Source of the DNA: Comamonadaceae bacterium
GTDB taxonomy: Bacteria > Pseudomonadota > Gammaproteobacteria > Burkholderiales > Burkholderiaceae_C
Length of the DNA: 64,000 nt
Direction of reading: 5' to 3'
Assembly (NCBI GenBank): GCA_947450695.1
Contig: CANFWV010000010.1
Coordinates: 1-64,000, forward strand
Both the position numbers and the translations under genes were made by a program. Under the pieces are notes generated by a model, which did no database searches, had not been told where the DNA came from, and was given only the letters and a program-made list of their open reading frames with translations. This document shows, piece after piece, positions 9,886-20,723 of this stretch. The first letter of the stretch is position 1. Every line of letters starts with the position of its first letter.

Positions 9886-10785
9886 TCAACCGGAAAAGCC
9901 CGCAACCTGTGTCGTTAGCCCCATTTGCATCAGCGCCGCATGGCCCAATAAACTGTCGGCATGTGCCAGAGTTTCGATGATTTCGAAATGGTTGAGGCCT
10001 TCGGCGACCAGCAGTTGCACTGGTTTCCCGGCGTCCGCAACGGCTGCTGCGAAATCGCGTGACTGGCGTTGGAACTCCGGCGTTTCAAGCGTGCCGTATG
10101 CCACGATCAGGGGCGCATTGAGCCAAGCGATGTGACGCTGCGCGCTCAACGCTTGCTCGCTCTCGTCGGTCAGATGCACATAGCTGCTGCGTGCAGACAG
10201 GCGAACTGGTTTCAGGTCAAAAATGCCGCTGCAGCACAGGCCGCTTTTGATCAAGTCCTGCGGCAGTCCAAACTCGCTGGCCCAGTCGGTCGTCAGCACC
10301 ACGCCTGCTAAGTGCGCACCCGACGAGTGGCCCAGCACGTGGATGCGTTGCGCGTCACCGCCAAAGCGAGCGGCATGTTCGTGCACCCAGACCACGGCGC
10401 GCTTGACCTGATCGGCCAACGTTGCCAGTTGGCCGTCCACGTCTTGCACGGCGGCAAAGTCGGGCACCACCAGATGCGCGCCGCAGCCTAACAAGAGTTC
10501 AGCGCAAAATCCATAATTACGCGCCAAACCAGCGCGCCATGCGCCGCCGTGGATGAAGATAGCGATGGGGGCATTTGGCCGGTTTGCTGGGTAAACATCC
10601 ATCCCTTCAATGGCGCTGTCGCCATAGGCAAAACGCAGCGGTTCACCGATGCGTTGGCGTACGGCAGCGCTGTTGTCCGCGTAGCGCTGCAGCACTTGCT
10701 GCTGATTGGGCGCATACACCGTCTGGTTGTAGGCGGCATCCAGTTCGGCTTGGTCCATGTCCAGCCATACCCGCTGGCCTTTCAT
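9886..10785 (-). CDS. Alpha/beta hydrolase, arylformamidase/HSL-like (second of tandem pair)
   Basis: A 299-residue serine hydrolase. The oxyanion-hole motif HGGAW is at about residues 79-83 and the nucleophile elbow GHSSG at about 152-156 (Ser154). The candidate catalytic His is in LNHFEII near the C-terminus. This HGGxW/GxSxG layout is shared by kynurenine formamidase-type and hormone-sensitive-lipase-type hydrolases. The start at ATG 10785 overlaps the preceding paralogue by ATGA; an upstream start at 10806 would overlap further. It is the last gene of the aromatic-acid array. Substrate is unknown; an amide or ester releasing the oxygenase substrate is a plausible guess. Confidence 0.85.
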   Translation of the reverse strand: MKGQRVWLDMDQAELDAAYNQTVYAPNQQQVLQRYADNSAAVRQRIGEPLRFAYGDSAIEGMDVYPANRPNAPIAIFIHGGAWRAGLARNYGFCAELLLGCGAHLVVPDFAAVQDVDGQLATLADQVKRAVVWVHEHAARFGGDAQRIHVLGHSSGAHLAGVVLTTDWASEFGLPQDLIKSGLCCSGIFDLKPVRLSARSSYVHLTDESEQALSAQRHIAWLNAPLIVAYGTLETPEFQRQSRDFAAAVADAGKPVQLLVAEGLNHFEIIETLAHADSLLGHAALMQMGLTTQVAGFSG

Positions 10786-11684
10786 GCCCGCCCCAGCAAG
10801 GCGCACTGAGCACGAAACAGGGCACTGGTCGGGTCAGCCCATTCGAGCACTGCATCAAAATGATGACGCCCCGCCAGCTCGAACAGTTCGGCGTACTTGC
10901 CTTGCGCCGTCCAGTCAGCCGCTACCTCGCGGCTTTGCAGTCGGTAATCGGCTGTCTCGTTGGCACCAACGGCCACCAGCAATGGACAGTCGGCCTGTGC
11001 CGCGTGGCGCAGCAAAGACACCTGAGCCACCATCTCAGGCGTCAAGTTGAGCTGCGCATTGCGAAAGGACAGGCGCACCGGCTCAAGATCACCCAGCCCG
11101 CTGATGAAGACGGCGCTTTTGATCAAGTCGGCTGGTGCATCGAAGTCGTTGGCCCAATCGGTCATCAACAGCTGCCCAACCAAGTTGGCACCGGATGAAT
11201 GGCCTGCGATATGGATGCGCCCCGGGTCGCCGCCATGCACCGCCACGTTGCGCCAGAGCCAGTACAGCGCCCGTCGAACCTGCGCACCCATCGCAGGCAA
11301 TTTGGTGGCCGGAACCGGTGTGAAATCGAGCGCCACAAACATGGCTCCTGCGGCAACAAAGGCTGGCGCGGCAAAACCGCTGTCGTCTTTCGACAGAGCA
11401 CGCCAGTCACCACCATGCAAATAGACCAGCACGGGTGCACGCTCACCCGTGGCTGGGTAGATGTCCAGCAGCTCGTTCGATCCCTCGCCATAAGCGACGT
11501 TTTCAATGCACGCGAGTGCCGCTTTTGCGGCCGCTGTTTGTTTGGTGTAGTCGCGCAGATAAAGCGTGACATCGGGCACCGTGCCGCGGCTGTTGTATTG
11601 CTGGTCAAGCTCGGCTTGGTCATAGCCTCGCCACACCGCAACGACGTTGGCCGCTGTAGCGGTACTGGCAGTATGGGCGCTCAC
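10782..11684 (-). CDS. Alpha/beta hydrolase, arylformamidase/HSL-like (first of tandem pair)
   Basis: A 300-residue paralogue of the next gene; both share a YDQAELDQQYN/MDQAELDAAYN-like N-terminus and overall layout. The oxyanion motif HGGDW is at about 90-94 and the nucleophile GHSSG at about 161-165 (Ser163). The candidate catalytic His is in GRHHFDAV near residue 275. No signal peptide is seen, so it should be cytoplasmic. It starts 1 bp after the TctC-like gene and overlaps its paralogue by 4 bp, so translation is probably coupled. Family members include kynurenine formamidase, which makes an anthranilate precursor, matching the anthranilate-type oxygenase upstream. That link is inference. 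Confidence 0.86.
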   Translation of the reverse strand: MSAHTASTATAANVVAVWRGYDQAELDQQYNSRGTVPDVTLYLRDYTKQTAAAKAALACIENVAYGEGSNELLDIYPATGERAPVLVYLHGGDWRALSKDDSGFAAPAFVAAGAMFVALDFTPVPATKLPAMGAQVRRALYWLWRNVAVHGGDPGRIHIAGHSSGANLVGQLLMTDWANDFDAPADLIKSAVFISGLGDLEPVRLSFRNAQLNLTPEMVAQVSLLRHAAQADCPLLVAVGANETADYRLQSREVAADWTAQGKYAELFELAGRHHFDAVLEWADPTSALFRAQCALLGRA

Positions 11685-11685
11685 G

Positions 11686-12669
11686 CTATTCGACCTTCGC
11701 GCCGGAAACCTTCACAGCTCGCGCATTGCGAGCGCTGTCAGTCACCAAAAATTCTGCAAACGCCTGAGGCGAGCTGGCGACCAGCTCATAAGACTTGGCG
11801 GTGATTTCTTTTTGGATAAATTCTGGCTCCTTCAAGATGCGGGTGACTTCCGCATGCAGCTTCATGATGATGTCATGTGGCGTGCCGGCCGGCGCAAACA
11901 AGCCAAACCAGGCGTTGGATGGCACATCGGGAAAGCCGGACTCGGCAAAGGTTGGGACGTCGGGCAGCAGCGCCATGCGCGACTTGCCGCCCACCGCCAG
12001 TGCTTTCAACTTGCCCGCCTTGATAAAAGCCTGCGACGAGGCCGCGCCGGAAAACGTCAACTGCACTTCATTGGCCAGTGCGGCAGGCACCGCCTGCGGA
12101 ATCCCCTTGTAAGGCACGTGCACGATGTCCATGCCGGTCTGGACCTTGAGCATTTCCATCGCCAGGTGCGGCTGGCTGCCGCTGCCGTAAGAGGCGTAAT
12201 TGAGCTTGCCGGGGTGGGCCTTGGCATAGACCACCAGCTCTTTCAGATTGTTGGCCGGCACAGTGGGGTTGGACAGCAGCAACTGGTTGAGCAAGACCAG
12301 CTGTGTGATCGGGGCGAAGTCCTTGACCGGGTCGTAGGGGAGCTTGGCATACAGATGCTGATTGATGGTCAGTGTTGAATCGCTCGTGACCATCAGCGTG
12401 TAACCATCTGCGGGCGCTTTGGCGACGAGTTCTGCCGCCAAAATCGTGCCTGCGCCCGGCTTGTTGTCTATCAGCACTGGCTGGCCTAAGCTGCGACTCA
12501 GGCGCTCGCCGATCACGCGTGAGAGAACATCAATGCCGCCACCCGCCGGATACGGCACCACGATGCGTATGGCTTTGGATGGGTAGGCTGCGGCGCTTTG
12601 CGCCAGCGCCGCAGGCATGGCACAGCAAGCCAACAGCAGCGCCGCTAGGGAAGTTTTCAATACGGTCAT
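11686..12669 (-). CDS. TctC/Bug-family periplasmic solute-binding protein (orphan)
   Basis: A 327-residue tripartite-tricarboxylate-transporter receptor. The signal peptide is about residues 1-23 (ALLLACCAMPAALAQ). The Bug-family fold begins YPSKAIRIVVPYPAGGGIDVLSR, with DNKPGAGTILAAE near residue 75 and the second-domain block VPTFAESGFPDV. The TctA and TctB membrane subunits are not in the window, so it must use a remote transporter, cooperate with the adjacent Liv system, or act as a sensor. Orphan Bug proteins are common in Burkholderiales. It lies 94 bp after livF and 1 bp before the hydrolase pair, and ligand is likely an aromatic or small organic acid (inference). Confidence 0.92.
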   Translation of the reverse strand: MTVLKTSLAALLLACCAMPAALAQSAAAYPSKAIRIVVPYPAGGGIDVLSRVIGERLSRSLGQPVLIDNKPGAGTILAAELVAKAPADGYTLMVTSDSTLTINQHLYAKLPYDPVKDFAPITQLVLLNQLLLSNPTVPANNLKELVVYAKAHPGKLNYASYGSGSQPHLAMEMLKVQTGMDIVHVPYKGIPQAVPAALANEVQLTFSGAASSQAFIKAGKLKALAVGGKSRMALLPDVPTFAESGFPDVPSNAWFGLFAPAGTPHDIIMKLHAEVTRILKEPEFIQKEITAKSYELVASSPQAFAEFLVTDSARNARAVKVSGAKVE

Positions 12670-12763
12670 GGGTCATTTCCAAAAATAAGCCTGCTGCCAT
12701 GCAGGGTGATCAAGCCCCGCCAGTGGGCGATGAATGACGGAAATAATAGGCCATAAGTTCAGC

Positions 12764-13476
12764 TCACACGCCGAGGTACTTTGTCCACAGGCTGCGGTCG
12801 GCGTTCAGCGCAGCGGAGTCGCCACTCCACACGACACTGCCGCGCTCCAGAATGACATGTCGGTCGGCCAATCCCACCAGCTTGCGGACGTATTTGTCGA
12901 CCAACAGAATGGTTTGTCCTTCAGACTTGAGTGTGGCCAGGCAGCGCCAGATTTCTTCGCGTATCACCGGCGCCAAGCCTTCGGTGGCTTCGTCCAAGAT
13001 CAGCAGGCGCGGATTGGTGGACAGTGCCCGTCCAATGGCCAGCATCTGCTGCTCACCGCCTGAGAGTTGGTTGCCGAGGTTGTCGGCACGCTCTTTGAGG
13101 CGCGGAAACACGCCGTAGATGCGCTCCAGCGTCCAGCCGTCACGCAGGCCGTTGCGGTTGTCGGCAAAGCACACCAAGTGCTCACGCACCGTGAGGTTCG
13201 GAAACACGCGCCGGCCTTCCGGTACCAGCCCCATGCCGAGCCGTGCAATGGCGTCGGGCTTGTCGCCATGCACCGCCTGCCCGGCAAAACGCACGCTGCC
13301 GGCCATGGGCGCGATCGAGCCGACGATGGTTTTGATGGTGGTACTTTTGCCCATGCCGTTGCGGCCCAGCAGCGTGACGATTTCGCCCTCCCGGATGCTC
13401 AGGTCAATCCCGAACAGCACTTGGCTGGCACCGTAGCCGGCGTTGAGTCCACGGCAATCGAGCAGTGGTTCGGCCT

Positions 13477-13480
<4 letters not shown>
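12764..13480 (-). CDS. livF: Branched-chain amino acid-type ABC transporter ATP-binding protein LivF
   Basis: A 238-residue ATPase of a HAAT-family importer. Walker A is GRNGMGKST (about 38-46), the signature LSGGEQQMLAIGRAL (about 137), Walker B LLILDEATEGLAP and the H-region ILLVDKYV, where Asp/Lys replace the usual ExH context. It overlaps livG by ATGA and ends the importer block. LivF-type subunits pair with LivG under the LivH/LivM channel. In this operon the importer probably carries an aromatic or related carboxylate rather than leucine. Confidence 0.94.
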
Positions 13481-14225
<745 letters not shown>

Positions 14226-14229
<4 letters not shown>

Positions 14230-15200
14230 GCGGTTCTCCTCTTGGCAAAACTCAGCAAAGCCGAGACACCCTGAGGCGCCCACAGTGCGGTGCTAATTAG
14301 CAACAAGCCGAGTGGCAGGTGCCAGTAATCCGTCTGCAGTTTCAATGTTTCTTCAAGCACCAGCCAGATGAACGCGCCCAGCGCACCACCCCAACGTCGG
14401 CCGAGCCCGCCGACCACCACCATCACCACCAGCGTTGCCGACTGCGTCCAGTGCATGGAGGCGGGACTGATAAAGCTGTTGTTCGCGGCCAGCAGCGCCC
14501 CCGCCAGTCCGGCCGCTGCGCCAGCCATCACAAAGGCCGCCAGTTGCAAGCGGTAGACCGGGTAGCCCAGTGCGCGCATGCGCAACTCGTTGTCGCGGAT
14601 GCCGGCGATCGCATGGCCAAAACGGGACTGCATGGCGCGGTTGAACAGCAGCATGACCAGCGCGATGATGGCCAACATCACCCAATACAAGGTGGGTTCG
14701 TGGGTGGCGTCCAGGCCGAAGCCGAGTTCCGGGCGAGCGGCGATGTTGTAGCCGTCGTCACCGCCGTAGCGGCGCAACGAGACAAAAACGAAGTACAGCA
14801 TTTGTGCAAACGCCAGCGTGATCATGATGAAGTAAACCCCTTGGGTGCGCAGTGACACAGCGCCTATGGCTGCGGCGACCAGTGCGGCCACCAGCACGGC
14901 GGCAGGCCACAGCACCCAGGCCGATGTGATCCCTGCATCGCTGAGCGCCACCACGGTGTAGGCCCCGACGCCGATAAAACCCGCGTGCCCGAGGGCGACC
15001 ATGCCGCCGTAACCCAGAATGATGTTGAGGCTGGCAGCCGCCAGCGCAAAAATCAGGATGCGTCTGAGCACGCCGATGTAAAAATCCAGCCCGAATGCCG
15101 AAGCCAGAAAGGGAAACGCGACCAATGCCGCCGCCACGATGGCCAGCAGAACGAGGTGGACGGTTTTAGGTTTTGAAATGCGCTCGGTGTTCATCGTCAT
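14226..15200 (-). CDS. livM: ABC transporter permease LivM
   Basis: A 324-residue inner-membrane permease with about nine predicted helices. The LivM/BPD_transp_2 signature region ILGYGGMVALGHAGFIGVGA is near residues 60-80, and GIRDNELRMRALGY forms the cytoplasmic EAA-like coupling loop near 200. Its start overlaps the livH stop by ATGA at 15197-15200, and its own stop overlaps livG. It forms the translocation pore with LivH. Confidence 0.93.
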
Positions 15201-16111
15201 GCCCGCGTCGCAAACAAGCCGGTCGGCTTGAAACTCAATACCACCGCCATCAGCGCGTACATGGCGATCTCGGCAAACAGGGGGGCCAAATCGGCCGCCG
15301 TGGTGGGCGACAAGGTGGCGCGCAATAGCATCGGTAAAAAGGCCCGGCCAATCGTGTCAACCAGGCCGACCAGCATGCTGGCCACAAGGGCACCGCGGAC
15401 CGAACCAATGCCGCCGATCACGATGACCACCAGGGCGGGGATCAAAATTGACTCGCCCATGCCAACCTGCACGGCCATGATCGGCCCCATGAGTCCGCCC
15501 GCCAGTGCGGCCAGCGCCGCGCCCAGCAAAAACACGCCGTTGAAAACGCGGCCCACACGCACACCCATCAGCTCCGCCATGCCCCGGTCGGAGGCGCCGG
15601 CGCGAACCCGCATGCCGACGCGGGTGTGGTTAACGAGTAGATACAAGCCCAAAGCGACCAGCAGGCCACCCCCGAGAATCAGCAGACGGTAGGACGGATA
15701 AGGCAGGCCGGGGATCAGTTCAATCGGGCCGGCAAGCGAGGCCGGCGTGGGCGCCATCACCGGCGACGGGCCCCAGATCATCTTGACCAGATCGTCGGCC
15801 ACCAAAATCACGCCAAAGGTGGCCAGCACCTGCGCCAGATGGTCGCGCCCATACAGGCGGCGCATCAGCAGCACTTCCAGCAGCAGCGCCACCATCACGG
15901 TGATGACCACCGCGATGATGAGCGCCGCCGCAAATGAGCCGCTGTGCACATGCGCTTGAGCGGCCACATAGGCCCCGGTCATGAACAGCGAACCGTGCGC
16001 CAAGTTCATGACGTCCATGATGCCAAACACCAGTGTCAGGCCGGCCGCCAACAGGAACAGCATGAAGCCGTAGCCCATGCCGTTGAGCAGTTGTTCAATG
16101 ACGAGGATCAT
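15197..16111 (-). CDS. livH: ABC transporter permease LivH
   Basis: A 304-residue inner-membrane permease of the HAAT family with about eight hydrophobic helices. The conserved LTLVFGIMDVMNLAHGSLFM segment is near residues 25-44. The coupling loop GASDRGMAELMGV lies near 180, and the helix VIVIGGIGSVRGALVASMLV near 235. It follows the solute-binding-protein gene by 39 bp and overlaps livM. Together with the binding protein and LivMGF it makes a complete importer inside the oxygenase operon. Confidence 0.93.
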   Translation of the reverse strand: MILVIEQLLNGMGYGFMLFLLAAGLTLVFGIMDVMNLAHGSLFMTGAYVAAQAHVHSGSFAAALIIAVVITVMVALLLEVLLMRRLYGRDHLAQVLATFGVILVADDLVKMIWGPSPVMAPTPASLAGPIELIPGLPYPSYRLLILGGGLLVALGLYLLVNHTRVGMRVRAGASDRGMAELMGVRVGRVFNGVFLLGAALAALAGGLMGPIMAVQVGMGESILIPALVVIVIGGIGSVRGALVASMLVGLVDTIGRAFLPMLLRATLSPTTAADLAPLFAEIAMYALMAVVLSFKPTGLFATRA

Positions 16112-16150
16112 GTCGTGTGCAGGGCGTGTGGGGGGACGGTGGGAGGCGCC

Positions 16151-17356
16151 TCACTTCATCGGGCATTTGTCTGCATAGGCATCGCCGTAGGCGGTCAGCA
16201 CTGTGCCCATGGTCTTGTTGGTCAGGCGGCCCTGGGCGTCCTTGCCGATGACACGCACGTAGAAGTTTTCAATCGGGTAATGGTTGTTGCCATATTTGAA
16301 GTTGCCGCGCACCGATGCGAACTGTGCCTTCTTCAACGCAGCGACCAAACCTTCACGTTGACTGCCGTCACCGCCGACGGCTTTGACCGCTGCGTCCATG
16401 GCCATGATCACGTCAAACGCCTGTGCTGCGTACATTGACGGGTAGCGGTTGTTGTATTCCCTGCGAAAGGCGGCGACAAATGTTTTGTTGGCAGCGTTGT
16501 CCAAGTCATGCGCCCAATACGACGTGTTGAGCAGGCCCAGCATGGGCTCGCCCACCGCCGGGATGATGTCTTCATCGGCAGAAAAACCGCTGGACACCAA
16601 GGTGATGTCTTTCGACAGGCCGGCACCGACGAACTGTTTGATGAAGTTGATGCCCATGGCGCCGGGCAAAAAGAAATACAGCGAATCCGGCTTGCTGGCG
16701 CGCAGCTGGGCTAACTCGGCAGCGTAGTCAATCTGACCGAGCTTGGTATAGATCTCATCACCGACTGCGCCCTTGAACTGGCGCTTGAAGCCGGTCAGGG
16801 CGTCTTTTCCGGCGGGGTAGTTGGGGGCGATCATGGCCGTCTTTTTAAAGCCGCGATCTGACGCGAACTTACCGGCCGCTTCGTGGTGTTGGTCGTTCTG
16901 GTAGGCCGTGCCAAAGAAAAAGGCGTTGCAGCCGGCACCGGCGTACTGGCTGGGTCCTGCGTTGTTCGAAAGGTAAGGGACTTTGGCCGCGAACAAGGTC
17001 GGGCCAATGGCCAACGCCACATTCGAGGCGATGGGGCCGGTGAACAGGTTGATTTTTTCGCGCTGCACAAAACGGTCCACCAGCTGCTTGGCTTGGTCGG
17101 GACTGCCGGCCATGTCGGCTTGGACGAACTCCGCAGGTTGGCCGCCCAGCTTGCCGCCCAGCAGCTTGATGGCCAGGTTGTAGCCGTCACGGGCTTCGGT
17201 ACCGGCCGATGCAAAGGGTCCCGAAATATCGAGCGCAATGCCCACCTTGATGGGGTCTGCGGCCAGTGCTTGCACACCGGATGCGGCCAGTACAGCAGCG
17301 AGGCCCGCCGTGCGTAGCGAAGACATCAGCGGGGATGTGGTCAGGAAAGATGTCAT
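16151..17356 (-). CDS. HAAT-family ABC transporter substrate-binding protein (LivK-like)
   Basis: A 401-residue periplasmic type I binding protein. The signal peptide is about residues 1-33 (TAGLAAVLAASGVQALAA). The fold then begins DPIKVGIALDISGPFASAGTE, with FTGPIASNVALAIGP near 120 and a paired-Cys C-terminus ending YADKCPMK. Homologues inside aromatic-degradation clusters bind benzoate-, anthranilate- or hydroxybenzoate-like ligands as well as amino acids (family knowledge). The operon position directly after the oxygenase ferredoxin supports an aromatic ligand. Gene spacing is 35 bp from the ferredoxin and 39 bp to livH. Confidence 0.92.
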   Translation of the reverse strand: MTSFLTTSPLMSSLRTAGLAAVLAASGVQALAADPIKVGIALDISGPFASAGTEARDGYNLAIKLLGGKLGGQPAEFVQADMAGSPDQAKQLVDRFVQREKINLFTGPIASNVALAIGPTLFAAKVPYLSNNAGPSQYAGAGCNAFFFGTAYQNDQHHEAAGKFASDRGFKKTAMIAPNYPAGKDALTGFKRQFKGAVGDEIYTKLGQIDYAAELAQLRASKPDSLYFFLPGAMGINFIKQFVGAGLSKDITLVSSGFSADEDIIPAVGEPMLGLLNTSYWAHDLDNAANKTFVAAFRREYNNRYPSMYAAQAFDVIMAMDAAVKAVGGDGSQREGLVAALKKAQFASVRGNFKYGNNHYPIENFYVRVIGKDAQGRLTNKTMGTVLTAYGDAYADKCPMK

Positions 17357-17391
17357 GGAGCTTCCAAAAGTTGCAGTTGAAAAAAAGAGCG

Positions 17392-17733
17392 TCAGGCTTC
17401 GGTTTTGACACCGACCTCAACCCGTCCGGCACGCAGCTGGACGGGAAAGCTGAGCACAGCTTCGGTGACCGGTCCACCACAGGGCGCACCGGTGCGAATG
17501 TCGAACAGACCTTGGTGCAAAGGGCACTCAATACAGCCGTTGTCGACATAGCCCTCAGACAACCTGGCGTTGCCGTGGGTGCACAGGTCATGCAGTGCGT
17601 GAAGCGAGTCCCCTTGTCTGAACACAGCAATCGCCATGCCACCAGCCACCACGGGCCAGACGGCGCCATCGGGAAAGTCATCCGGCTCGCCGACGTCGTG
17701 CCAGTTCAGGTCGGTATCGTTCAGTGTTTGCAT
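17392..17733 (-). CDS. Rieske-type [2Fe-2S] ferredoxin of a ring-hydroxylating oxygenase
   Basis: A 113-residue electron carrier. Rieske ligands are C51-T-H53-G and C70-P-L-H73 (CTHG ... CPLHQG) with 16 residues between. It resembles AndAb/NahAb-type ferredoxins of three-component dioxygenases, passing electrons from an FAD reductase to the terminal oxygenase. It lies 12 bp after the beta-subunit gene. The order alpha-beta-ferredoxin matches the anthranilate dioxygenase andAc-Ad-Ab cluster known from Burkholderia. The fourth component, the NADH:ferredoxin reductase (AndAa), is missing: a LivK-like gene follows instead. Confidence 0.9.
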   Translation of the reverse strand: MQTLNDTDLNWHDVGEPDDFPDGAVWPVVAGGMAIAVFRQGDSLHALHDLCTHGNARLSEGYVDNGCIECPLHQGLFDIRTGAPCGGPVTEAVLSFPVQLRAGRVEVGVKTEA

Positions 17734-17745
17734 GGTGTTCGCGCC

Positions 17746-18237
17746 TCAGATAGGGGTTGCCAGCAGCGTCATGACGCGCGATGTGTCATAGACCACGCGG
17801 CGTTGGCTGTAGCGCCAGCCGGCAGGCGTGCGAACAATCCGGTCTAAGTAGCGCCCGGCTTGGTAAACAAAAGACTCACCATTGGTGCGCGTTTGCACCA
17901 CGACGTAGCTTGATTCCGCACTGACTGTGTCGGCGTCCTCCGGCGTGATGATCAAGCCGGAGGTCATGTGGCGGCAGCTGTGTTCTTCAAAAATACTGGC
18001 GTGGCGCAGCGACAGCACACGGTCGCGCAGCATGCGCTGGTTGTTGCAGTAAATAAGGCCAATCGGCAGGCCCATGTCGGCATTTTCTTTGGGCACGATT
18101 TCATACAGACAGTCTTCGGTGAACAAGGTGGCCCATTCTTCGAGCCGGTCGTTGTCCAAGGCTGCGCAGTAGCGTTCCTGCAACTGGTGGATCTCGAACC
18201 AGAGTTGCAGGGTCAATGGCATATCGGTGGTGTTCAT
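17746..18237 (-). CDS. Aromatic-ring-hydroxylating oxygenase, beta (small) subunit
   Basis: A 163-residue SnoaL/NTF2-like small subunit of the alpha3beta3 oxygenase. Typical segments are QLQERYCAALDNDRLEEWATLF near residues 17-38, the VLSLRHASIFEEHSCRHM region near 75-92 and the C-terminal RRVVYDTSRV strand. It starts 1 bp before the alpha-subunit stop region and is followed by the ferredoxin gene. It is structural and has no cofactor of its own. It resembles AndAd-type subunits, but the substrate cannot be fixed from sequence alone. Confidence 0.9.
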   Translation of the reverse strand: MNTTDMPLTLQLWFEIHQLQERYCAALDNDRLEEWATLFTEDCLYEIVPKENADMGLPIGLIYCNNQRMLRDRVLSLRHASIFEEHSCRHMTSGLIITPEDADTVSAESSYVVVQTRTNGESFVYQAGRYLDRIVRTPAGWRYSQRRVVYDTSRVMTLLATPI

Positions 18238-18238
18238 G

Positions 18239-19525
18239 TCAATACCCCATCAAACGTTGATAACCCACCCAAAACCGGCGGATCAGGTTCTCGGTGATCA
18301 TGGTGTCTTGGCGCATCGGGTCGCTGCGGCCCAAGTCCATCACGGACACGGCGTCGCCGTCGCGGTAGGTACCGCGCTGCACCAGCTCGGTGGCTTCGGT
18401 GTCTTCCATCGAGATATAACCGGCTGGCCCGACCAGGTTGGCCTGCTTGATGCGCAGTGCGCGCAACTCGGGTGTGTCGTCTTCGTAGCCGAAGAAATGA
18501 AACACCAACTCGAACTCGTCCGGTCCTTTGGGCAGCACTTGACGCGCCACCAGCGTGTTGTGAATCTGCTGCAGCACCAATTGTGGAAACAGCGACTGGA
18601 TATGGTTGGTGCAAGCCTCTTCGTACTCCGGGATAAAACCCAGCACCGAATCGTCCTCCAGGTGAAAGCCGTCGTCCATAGAACGAATCGCTTGCTGCTT
18701 GTAAGCGCTGGCGGTGTCGTTGTCATCGACCTTGGTGGCGGTGATGATGCTGTGCAAGCCGTGGGTGGCATCCGGAATTGAACGCGCCTTCATGCCGACA
18801 CGGAAAATATTGAAGGTGGTGTGGAACAGGTGCAGCAGGCTGGCGTGGTACGGGTCCTTGACGTTCTCGTAGTACAGCTTCCAGTTTGACTTGGCGTACT
18901 GGCGGGTGCAGCCTAAATAGACAATTGGTTTGTGCATCACGCGGTCGATCCACGGCCGCATCTGCTCGCCTAAGTAGTCCGGCAGCGGTGGTGTTTCGTC
19001 GCTGAAACTGGCGAACACCAAACCCTTGTAGCTGTTCACACGCAACTGGCGCATGCCATGCTCGGCATTCTTGAAGTCGGCCGGCATACCGGGTGCGCCG
19101 TTCTGGCCGCGCCGGAAAGGCACACCTTCCAGATTGCCCTTGGTGTCATAGCTCCACTGGTGGTAGACGCAGGTGTGCGAGCTGGCGTTGCCCTTGGCCT
19201 TGCGGCAGACGATGGCACCGCGGTGAGCGCAGCGATTGACCCAGGCCGCCAAGCCGCCTTCGGGTGTGCGCGTCACCACCACCGGCGTGTCGCCGACGAA
19301 GGTGGACTTGTAGTCCCCTGGGTTGGGAATTTCGCATTCGAGGGCGACAAAATTCCAGGTCGGGCCGCGGAAAATCCGGGCCTGTTCGCGCTCGTAAACC
19401 TCTTGCGAGCTGAAGACCTTGTAGGGAACGCGGGAACCGTCAGGGTGCGGGAAATGCACCAACTCGTCCTGCTGGTGTGTCGGGGTGGCCTTTTTCAGTG
19501 CGCTGATATCAATGGGTATGTTCAT
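18239..19525 (-). CDS. Aromatic-ring-hydroxylating oxygenase, alpha (large) subunit, AndAc-like
   Basis: A 428-residue terminal oxygenase subunit. The Rieske domain has C99-x-H101 and C119-x2-H122. The catalytic domain has the mononuclear Fe(II) site NVKDPYHASLLH, with H227 and H232 as ligands, D224 as the bridging Asp, and D375 in SMEDTEATE the likely third ligand. Such enzymes insert dioxygen into aromatic acids, here probably anthranilate- or salicylate-like, judged by overall character and the alpha-beta-ferredoxin order. The frame extends about 100 codons upstream into the regulatory region, but the ATG at 19525 gives the normal N-terminus. It is the first gene of the array, divergent from the AraC-type regulator. 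Confidence 0.92.
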   Translation of the reverse strand: MNIPIDISALKKATPTHQQDELVHFPHPDGSRVPYKVFSSQEVYEREQARIFRGPTWNFVALECEIPNPGDYKSTFVGDTPVVVTRTPEGGLAAWVNRCAHRGAIVCRKAKGNASSHTCVYHQWSYDTKGNLEGVPFRRGQNGAPGMPADFKNAEHGMRQLRVNSYKGLVFASFSDETPPLPDYLGEQMRPWIDRVMHKPIVYLGCTRQYAKSNWKLYYENVKDPYHASLLHLFHTTFNIFRVGMKARSIPDATHGLHSIITATKVDDNDTASAYKQQAIRSMDDGFHLEDDSVLGFIPEYEEACTNHIQSLFPQLVLQQIHNTLVARQVLPKGPDEFELVFHFFGYEDDTPELRALRIKQANLVGPAGYISMEDTEATELVQRGTYRDGDAVSVMDLGRSDPMRQDTMITENLIRRFWVGYQRLMGY

Positions 19526-19596
19526 GGGCTGGTTCCTTGTGCATGCCTTATTTTTCAAAGAGACGGCAATGCTGGCTATCCGTTTAGCGCAGGATG

Positions 19597-19658
19597 GCGA
19601 ACACCTTGTCCACTTGCCGCCGTTATTGATCGGCTGCCCTGATTCACAAGGTGTTCGC
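19597..19658. promoter_or_regulatory. Perfect 13-bp inverted repeat in the oxygenase/regulator divergent region
   Basis: The left arm 19597-19609 (GCGAACACCTTGT) and right arm 19646-19658 (ACAAGGTGTTCGC) are exact reverse complements separated by 36 bp. The octamer GGATGGCG also occurs twice in direct orientation, at 19592-19599 and 19662-19669. The arms lie about 70-130 bp upstream of the oxygenase start and 34-95 bp upstream of the regulator start. A pair of operator half-sites, possibly looped, is the likeliest meaning. Confidence 0.6.
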
Positions 19659-19691
19659 TGTGGATGGCGCGCTTCTTGCAAATTCAAGACG

Positions 19692-20723
19692 GTGCAAACT
19701 CTGAACGCATCCCCCACCAACGCTTTTGACCTTCGAAGCGCGGGCGTCTTTGAGCCCAGTCTGCTACGCGCCAACCGGCTGTTTGAGTCCAGTGACCTGG
19801 AAGACACGCGCGAACGCATCTCGCGTGTCATGCAGCCCCATCACCTTCAGCCGCTGGGGCGCCACACCCGCAGCCCCCTCCCGCAAAGCTCGCACATGGA
19901 CTTTGTACGTGTGGGCGGCATTGGTCTGGGTGCGATTGACTTTGGTGAAGCCATGCGGGTCGATGTCGACCATGTCGAGGACTACCACCTGCTGATGTTC
20001 TGCTTGCGTGGCAGCGCTCAGACCCTCGCCGATGGCCACCCGGTGCAAGCCAATGTCAGCCACGGCATGATCTGCGCGCCGGGTCGTTCCTTTGTTGCGG
20101 ACCTGTCTGCCGATTGCGAGCAGTTTGTGGTGCGGCTTGACAGCAGCATGGTCGAAGCACATGCAGGCTGCAATTTGCATTTTCACCACAGCTTAGACCT
20201 GCGCCGGCCCGAGTTGCAGGCTTGGCTCGAGCAGTTGCGCATGGTGGCCACGTCCAGCACCTTGCTGCAAACGGCGCAGCACAAACCGCTGATCGCGGTT
20301 GAACTGGAGCGTTTGCTGGTCCTGCTGTTGTTGCACGGCCAGACTTGGACGGATCACAGCCAGGTCAAGGTTTCGAGTACTGCCGGTCGCGGCCTTGCGC
20401 CTTCCTGCGTTCGACATGCCGAGGCGTACATGCAGGCACATGCCGACCAGCCCTTGCGCTTGGCCGACATTGCCCGGGCGACTGACATCCCTGCCCGCAC
20501 TTTGTTGAGTGCCTTTCAACGCTTTCGCGACTGCAGTCCCATGCAGTACCTGCGCAAGGTTCGGCTGGAACTGGCCCACCAGCGCCTGTGCGAGCCCGAT
20601 ACCGGGGCCACAGTCGCTTCAGTCGCCATGGATTGCGGCTTTATGCATCTAGGCCGCTTTGCCCAGATCTACCGCGACCGATTTGGTGTCTCGCCGTCTG
20701 CAACGCTGCAAGCCCGGCGCTGA
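19692..20723 (+). CDS. AraC/XylS-family transcriptional regulator
   Basis: A 343-residue regulator. The N-terminal ligand-binding half (about 1-220) is of the AraC_binding_2 type (MDFVRVGGIGLGAIDFGEAM; RVDVDHVEDYHLLMFCLRG). The C-terminal half carries two HTH motifs, the first at LRLADIARATDIPARTLLSAF and the second at VASVAMDCGFMHLGRFAQIY, followed by the family-typical YRDRFGVSPS. It is divergent from the oxygenase operon and almost certainly controls it, as AndR does for anthranilate dioxygenase genes. The start is uncertain: GTG 19692 gives the usual length, while ATG 19569 would place the 13-bp inverted repeat inside the gene. Confidence 0.85.
   Translation: MQTLNASPTNAFDLRSAGVFEPSLLRANRLFESSDLEDTRERISRVMQPHHLQPLGRHTRSPLPQSSHMDFVRVGGIGLGAIDFGEAMRVDVDHVEDYHLLMFCLRGSAQTLADGHPVQANVSHGMICAPGRSFVADLSADCEQFVVRLDSSMVEAHAGCNLHFHHSLDLRRPELQAWLEQLRMVATSSTLLQTAQHKPLIAVELERLLVLLLLHGQTWTDHSQVKVSSTAGRGLAPSCVRHAEAYMQAHADQPLRLADIARATDIPARTLLSAFQRFRDCSPMQYLRKVRLELAHQRLCEPDTGATVASVAMDCGFMHLGRFAQIYRDRFGVSPSATLQARR

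What the first reader, a model, noticed from the sequence alone, without database searches (positions are those of the whole stretch)
9886..20723. Self-contained aromatic-acid locus: oxygenase, ABC importer, orphan TctC and twin hydrolases in one array
Eleven collinear genes on one strand (spacings mostly -4 to 39 bp, one 94-bp gap) join a Rieske oxygenase (alpha, beta, ferredoxin), a complete LivKHMGF-type importer, a TctC binding protein and two arylformamidase-like hydrolases, under a divergent AraC/XylS regulator. Family knowledge: alpha-beta-ferredoxin with divergent AraC matches anthranilate dioxygenase (AndR/AndAc-Ad-Ab). Inference: a module that imports an aromatic conjugate (amide or ester), cleaves it with the hydrolases and feeds the oxygenase. 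The combination is unfamiliar to me.
Basis: partly seen in the sequence, partly recalled or inferred. Interest (0 to 1): 0.72.

Follow-up and report, generated by a model that had tools for sequence, protein, structure and literature searches.

The report
Anthranilate-breakdown genes with their own importer
A bacterium carries genes that probably take up and break down anthranilate (a tryptophan-related aromatic acid) together in one operon, with a separate, loosely attached hydrolase module behind it; the uptake part is a recurring arrangement that offers a testable candidate for an anthranilate transporter.

Summary
The eleven-gene array and the divergent regulator are real. They are best read as two modules. 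The first (AndR / AndAc-AndAd-AndAb-LivKHMGF, 12764-20723) is an anthranilate-dioxygenase operon in which a Liv-type importer sits where the reductase gene andAa normally is. Among 80 AndAc loci, 24 carry this importer and none of those has andAa; 49 of the other 56 have andAa. LivK matches solved benzoate-type binding proteins best. Relatives of the importer also lie within 26 kb of the 2-aminobenzoyl-CoA monooxygenase gene in 7 of the 13 LivK genomes that have it, so an anthranilate-type substrate is the best guess. The second module (TctC-Hyd1-Hyd2) stands alone, in the same order, in the one same-genus genome seen, which has no AndAc over the cut-off. TctC says little: the host has at least 150. 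The hydrolases are intact and only family-level relatives of N-acetylanthranilate amidase. Verdict: a new variant of a known kind, with a useful candidate anthranilate importer.

The parts
19692..20723 (+). andR, AraC/XylS-type regulator of anthranilate dioxygenase (start codon uncertain)
   Evidence: NF041686 455.4 bits, cut-off 350; PF14525 and PF12833
19577..19620 (-). predicted AndR operator: two direct repeats (19577-19590 and 19607-19620), 30 bp apart
   Evidence: a direct pair at 29-31 bp spacing in 19 of 20 Liv-type loci with an AndR (L005-L023; in L081 the two hits are inverted); the only two hits in the 64-kb window. The pattern was taken from the alignment of the window with L005-L023
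18239..19525 (-). andAc, oxygenase alpha subunit
   Evidence: NF041684 822.6 bits, cut-off 750; iron ligands H227, H232, D375 and R328 invariant in 81 sequences
17746..18237 (-). andAd, oxygenase beta subunit
   Evidence: NF041685 274.2 bits, cut-off 230
17392..17733 (-). andAb, Rieske ferredoxin
   Evidence: NF041683 145.3 bits, just under cut-off 150; PF00355
16151..17356 (-). livK-like binding protein
   Evidence: PF13458; best solved relatives 4evq/4evr, 4ey3, 4zpj, 4evs, 4f06
15197..16111 (-). livH-like permease
   Evidence: PF02653
14226..15200 (-). livM-like permease
   Evidence: PF02653
13477..14229 (-). livG-like ATPase
   Evidence: PF00005 and PF12399
12764..13480 (-). livF-like ATPase; last gene of the conserved unit
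   Evidence: PF00005; the next gene varies among the 22 relatives with LivF in view
11686..12669 (-). tctC, orphan binding protein (second module)
   Evidence: PF03401 257.1 bits; 87% orthologue in G099 away from And
10782..11684 (-). Hyd1, HGGDW / GHSSG alpha/beta hydrolase (second module)
   Evidence: PF20434 and PF07859; model pLDDT 90.7, best fold matches 9n8r, 2pbl, kynurenine formamidase 4e15
9886..10785 (-). Hyd2, paralogue of Hyd1 (39% identical)
   Evidence: PF20434 and PF07859; identity

Best explanation
Two neighbouring modules. Module 1 (AndR, AndAcAdAb, LivKHMGF) takes up anthranilate, or a very similar 2-substituted benzoate, with a Liv-type ABC importer and converts it with the AndAcAdAb dioxygenase to catechol, carbon dioxide and ammonium, switched on by AndR from paired repeats ahead of andAc. 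Electrons come from a reductase encoded elsewhere, since andAa is absent; a BenC-type reductase on another contig is a candidate. Module 2 (TctC, Hyd1, Hyd2) is a separable TctC-hydrolase cassette that became attached behind LivF, perhaps sharing read-through transcription. Its two serine hydrolases probably cut an aryl ester or N-acyl amide, whose product may or may not be anthranilate. Shown by computation: gene content, conservation, the separability of the modules, intact catalytic residues. Inferred: substrates, regulation, electron partner, co-transcription and how the modules came together.
Confidence: 0.7

Rival explanations
1. One reading: LivK or TctC brings in an N-acyl (formyl or acetyl) anthranilate or an anthranilate ester, Hyd1/Hyd2 free the anthranilate, AndAcAdAb oxidises it. 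(Not exclusive of the best explanation; the odds of the rivals overlap.)
Against: About 30-42% identity to Amq is the family background among the 70 matches listed, and Hyd1 ranks below most of them. Hyd1/Hyd2 fall in another clade than all six importer-linked hydrolases in the tree. Module 2 stands alone in G099. No Hyd homologue was found in the 24 Liv-type And loci.
Confidence: 0.2
2. The importer is a broad aromatic-acid (benzoate, salicylate, hydroxybenzoate) transporter and the oxygenase acts on salicylate as much as on anthranilate.
For: Closest solved binding proteins hold 4-hydroxybenzoate or vanillate where the title names a ligand. RPA0668 binds benzoate and salicylate. Family-4 ABC importers are reported next to several aromatic pathways (PMC2842291, passages). 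The CoA-route monooxygenase model is named salicylyl-CoA 5-hydroxylase.
Against: AndAc passes the anthranilate equivalog cut-off. RidA-type deaminases in the CoA operons fit an amino substrate. The invariant R328 and I309 do not decide: PMC9060491 reports the equivalents in a salicylate hydroxylase too.
Confidence: 0.25
3. The importer carries ordinary branched-chain amino acids and lies beside the oxygenase by chance.
For: Fold and gene order are those of Liv systems.
Against: The arrangement recurs in 24 of 80 AndAc loci, in two separate parts of the AndAc tree. The NCBIfam cut-offs for urea and branched-chain amino-acid importers are not reached. Four of the five best solved relatives by sequence are R. 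palustris benzoate-type binders.
Confidence: 0.05

Closest known systems
andAcAdAbAa-andR of Burkholderia cepacia DBO1 (Chang 2003; cited in PMC9060491, original not held; its gene order is recalled)
   Same: regulator, alpha, beta and ferredoxin genes in the order seen in the Burkholderiaceae loci fetched here; AndAc about 77-81% identical to those loci
   Different: no andAa reductase; five importer genes in its place; TctC and two hydrolases behind
Liv-type (family 4) ABC importers next to aromatic catabolic genes, such as hba/RPA0668 of R. palustris and box-linked importers
   Same: five-gene importer beside an aromatic pathway; nearest binding-protein structures
   Different: here fused to anthranilate dioxygenase genes; ligand not measured
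2-aminobenzoyl-CoA operons with LivKHMGF in G020 and G088
   Same: related importer (LivK 57-58% identical), RidA and a hydrolase of the same family in one collinear run
   Different: non-homologous ring chemistry (CoA ligase and flavin monooxygenase/reductase); hydrolase of another clade
N-acetylanthranilate amidase Amq of pAL1 (name recalled)
   Same: same alpha/beta hydrolase family, 35% identity to Hyd1
   Different: not grouped with it in the tree (Amq is a long branch); other family members are as close or closer

Membership tests
AndAcAdAbAa anthranilate 1,2-dioxygenase | alpha and beta subunits over the equivalog cut-offs | tested here: met
   822.6 against 750 and 274.2 against 230
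AndAcAdAbAa anthranilate 1,2-dioxygenase | ferredoxin AndAb over the equivalog cut-off | tested here: inconclusive
   145.3 against 150, but the best family match
AndAcAdAbAa anthranilate 1,2-dioxygenase | AndAa-type reductase in the operon | tested here: not met
   absent from the array; no PF14759 match at E <= 0.001 in the host; the locus is therefore filed as a variant
AndAcAdAbAa anthranilate 1,2-dioxygenase | divergent AndR regulator | tested here: met
   455.4 against 350
AndAcAdAbAa anthranilate 1,2-dioxygenase | Rieske and mononuclear iron ligands, substrate-carboxylate Arg | tested here: met
   mapped by hand through and residues named in PMC9060491
AndAcAdAbAa anthranilate 1,2-dioxygenase | anthranilate-to-catechol activity | not testable with these tools
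   needs enzyme assay
Liv-type aromatic-acid ABC importer | binding protein, two permeases and two ATPases together | tested here: met
Liv-type aromatic-acid ABC importer | binding protein closest to aromatic-acid binders | tested here: met
   four of the five best sequence matches are R. palustris benzoate-type binders; the fifth, 4zpj, has no stated ligand
Liv-type aromatic-acid ABC importer | aromatic ligand bound | not testable with these tools
   needs ligand-shift or calorimetry
N-acetylanthranilate amidase (Amq) | groups with Amq rather than with other family members | tested here: not met
   Amq is a long branch, so its own place is unsure
kynurenine pathway (arylformamidase with kynureninase) | kynureninase in the genome | tested here: not met
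   0 matches to TIGR01814 at E <= 0.001 in a 92.7% complete genome
tripartite tricarboxylate transporter | TctA and TctB with TctC | tested here: not met
   no TctA/TctB gene in the array; the rest of the genome was not searched for them

The most novel reading that the evidence does not exclude
This LivKHMGF lineage is a dedicated anthranilate importer that has been attached independently to two unrelated ways of breaking anthranilate (Rieske dioxygenase and 2-aminobenzoyl-CoA route), often with a hydrolase that releases anthranilate from N-acyl conjugates; in the window a TctC-hydrolase cassette fills that last role.
Probability: 0.35. Interest if true: 0.65.

Novelty: new variant of a known kind. 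Interest (0 to 1): 0.48.

Why it matters
A 2020 paper states that its authors knew of no specific anthranilate transporter (PMC7778614, passage seen), and a search for 'anthranilate uptake' found 0 papers in the held library. The conserved And-Liv unit and its relatives near the CoA route give a concrete candidate that can be tested with one purified binding protein and one deletion. The exchange of the reductase gene for an importer also raises the question of which reductase serves these oxygenases.

Tried and rejected
A kynurenine source of anthranilate inside the cell: no kynureninase found. AndAa-type reductase elsewhere in the host: none. A terminator in the 94-bp gap: one hairpin at 12705-12690; the scanned region as a whole has 19 terminator-like sites against 11.4 +/- 3.4 in shuffles, mostly inside genes, so no claim. 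A shared leader ahead of TctC in the window and in G099: local alignment score 33 against a shuffled mean of 21.7 and maximum of 35 in 300, too weak to use. Grouping of Hyd1 with Amq: rejected. A longest-ORF gene caller failed on GC-rich opposite-strand ORFs and was replaced by a codon-score caller; later neighbourhood calls rest on that home-made caller. Host catechol dioxygenase: none over the cut-off, with the C18 intradiol matches left unclassified. A search for N-octanoylanthranilate/AqdA papers gave nothing used here.

Rows and limits: L024, L036 and L049 end at or just after AndAd/AndAb and cannot really be scored for the next gene, although they are counted among the 56 without Liv (L024 may cause one of the four label changes). 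L005 and L023 end before LivF. In L021-L023 no AndAb hit was seen between AndAd and LivK. Of 27 LivK genomes, wide contexts were read for 21 besides the host; G228, G282, G477, G505 and G558 were not. Other hydrolase/Liv neighbours with lower identities (L112, L156, L157, L159, L174) are not in the 6 of 21.

Full report
The array. Twelve genes were confirmed between 9886 and 20723. On the minus strand, in order of transcription: andAc, andAd, andAb, livK, livH, livM, livG, livF, tctC, hyd1, hyd2, with gaps from -4 to 39 bp and one of 94 bp between livF and tctC (with the LivG start corrected to 14229). AndR is divergent. Host: a 3.34-Mb assembly in 119 contigs, 92.7% complete. Its family contains contigs whose lengths equal those of named Xenophilus, Pseudorhodoferax and Variovorax records, so it is probably a member of the Comamonadaceae; that is an inference.

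The oxygenase. AndAc, AndAd and AndR exceed curated equivalog cut-offs; AndAb misses by 4.7 bits. The nearest solved structures are terephthalate dioxygenase (7vju, 7q04) and salicylate 5-hydroxylase. Using residues named in PMC9060491 (passages), R309 and I290 of that enzyme correspond to R328 and I309 here, both invariant in 81 AndAc; N224, S243 and R390, reported only in the terephthalate enzyme, correspond to F241, T262 and M409. The mapping was counted by hand on the printed alignment. Position 409 varies (M 18, V 52, L 7, A 2, T 1, N 1 of 81). So it is an AndAc-type oxygenase by sequence; activity is not shown.

The importer is part of the operon in a lineage. Of 80 AndAc loci, 24 have LivK over 60% identity directly after the oxygenase genes: L005-L023, L078 and L081-L084. 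None of the 24 has andAa; 49 of the other 56 do, next to AndAb. Of the remaining seven, three are contig-limited, one (L071) has a BenC-like reductase, and three Methylophilus loci have neither. In the 24, a BenC-like reductase follows LivF in three: L081, L083 and L084. In an even sample of 200 genomes of the host's family, 8 have AndAc over the cut-off, host included, and 7 of those 8 have LivK next to it; at least three of these genomes are the same as named loci above. The AndAc tree needs four changes for the Liv label, against about 22 in shuffles; near-copies inflate such contrasts. The LivK tree and the identity table show the window's Liv genes closer to the Acidovorax type while its And genes are closer to the Variovorax/Xenophilus type. 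The operon therefore looks like a recombination of two parts with the joint between andAb and livK; the decisive LivK fork has SH-aLRT 94.

The second module. In G099, the only same-genus genome seen, TctC (87%), Hyd1 (74%) and Hyd2 (78%) lie in the same order with other flanks; AndAc is below the cut-off there. TctC-hydrolase pairs related to Hyd2 occur in G130, G341 and G566, and MFS genes lie next to Hyd2-type hydrolases in three further genomes and next to TctC in G099. In the tree, Hyd1 and Hyd2 fall in one group of 11 rows with three TctC-linked hydrolases; two other TctC-linked ones (L165, L173) fall elsewhere, as do all six importer-linked ones. Four of those six group with Amq and two (G020, G088) in a third group; Amq and L087 are long branches whose place is unsure. 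The host has at least 150 TctC genes over the cut-off, so an orphan TctC in any eleven-gene stretch is not surprising; weaker TctC paralogues (36-41%) also turn up in 7 of the 24 Liv-type loci. Both hydrolases keep HGGxW, GHSSG and the invariant Glu and His. Hyd1 folds like 9n8r, 2pbl and kynurenine formamidase.

Does a hydrolase belong with the importer? In 21 non-host LivK genomes whose contexts were read, a hydrolase of this family lies within three genes of the importer in 6: G295, G330, G335, G128, G020 and G088. These stand for about three lineages, not six independent events.

Regulation and electron supply. Two direct repeats 30 bp apart lie ahead of andAc at 19577-19590 and 19607-19620. 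A direct pair with 29-31 bp spacing is present in 19 of the 20 Liv-type loci with an AndR; in L081 the two hits are inverted. In the window there are no other hits, so none ahead of tctC. The pattern came from 19 of these same loci and the window, so its presence there is partly built in; the constant spacing is not. AndR binding is inferred. The host lacks an AndAa-type reductase and has a BenC-like reductase 49% identical to the one that follows LivF in Acidovorax soli. It also holds an unlinked 2-aminobenzoyl-CoA gene set on contig C60. No catechol dioxygenase passed its cut-off.

Literature. PMC7778614 (passages) says its authors knew of no specific anthranilate transporter. PMC2842291 (passages) reports family-4 ABC importers beside aromatic pathways, including ring-hydroxylating dioxygenases, and PMC6449761 (passages) reports predicted benzoate ABC importers in BoxR regulons and mentions AndR only in passing, so the kind of arrangement is known. 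The library holds only openly licensed papers, and the original DBO1 paper was not held, so any statement of novelty is limited to the ten searches.

Verdict. Confirmed observation, partly supported interpretation, new variant of a known kind, with a testable transporter candidate as its main value.

Noticed in passing
host genome G000: At least 150 TctC-family genes over the Pfam cut-off in a 3.34-Mb assembly (150 of 166 candidates scored), a very large expansion.
   Followed up: no
L260 2240-10085 (G000 contig C60): A second anthranilate route in the host: 2-aminobenzoyl-CoA monooxygenase, MarR, enoyl-CoA hydratase, acyl-CoA dehydrogenase, CoA ligase and RidA, unlinked to the window.
   Followed up: partly
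window 19665-19679: A 15-bp block (GCAAGAAGCGCGCCA on the minus strand) almost invariant in the window and 19 AndR-type loci, outside the paired repeats.
   Followed up: no
L040 261-8627: Burkholderia sp. WSM2232 carries genes of the 2-aminobenzoyl-CoA route beside its AndAc locus.
   Followed up: no
L232 3171-8170 (G122): A LivK relative without adjacent permease or ATPase genes, near another ring-hydroxylating oxygenase.
   Followed up: no
L184 (G000 contig C4): Two intradiol dioxygenases well below catechol cut-offs near an iron-type alcohol dehydrogenase, perhaps a hydroxyquinol route.
   Followed up: partly
L021-L023 (Pseudacidovorax): Liv-type And loci in which no AndAb ferredoxin hit was seen between AndAd and LivK.
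   Followed up: no
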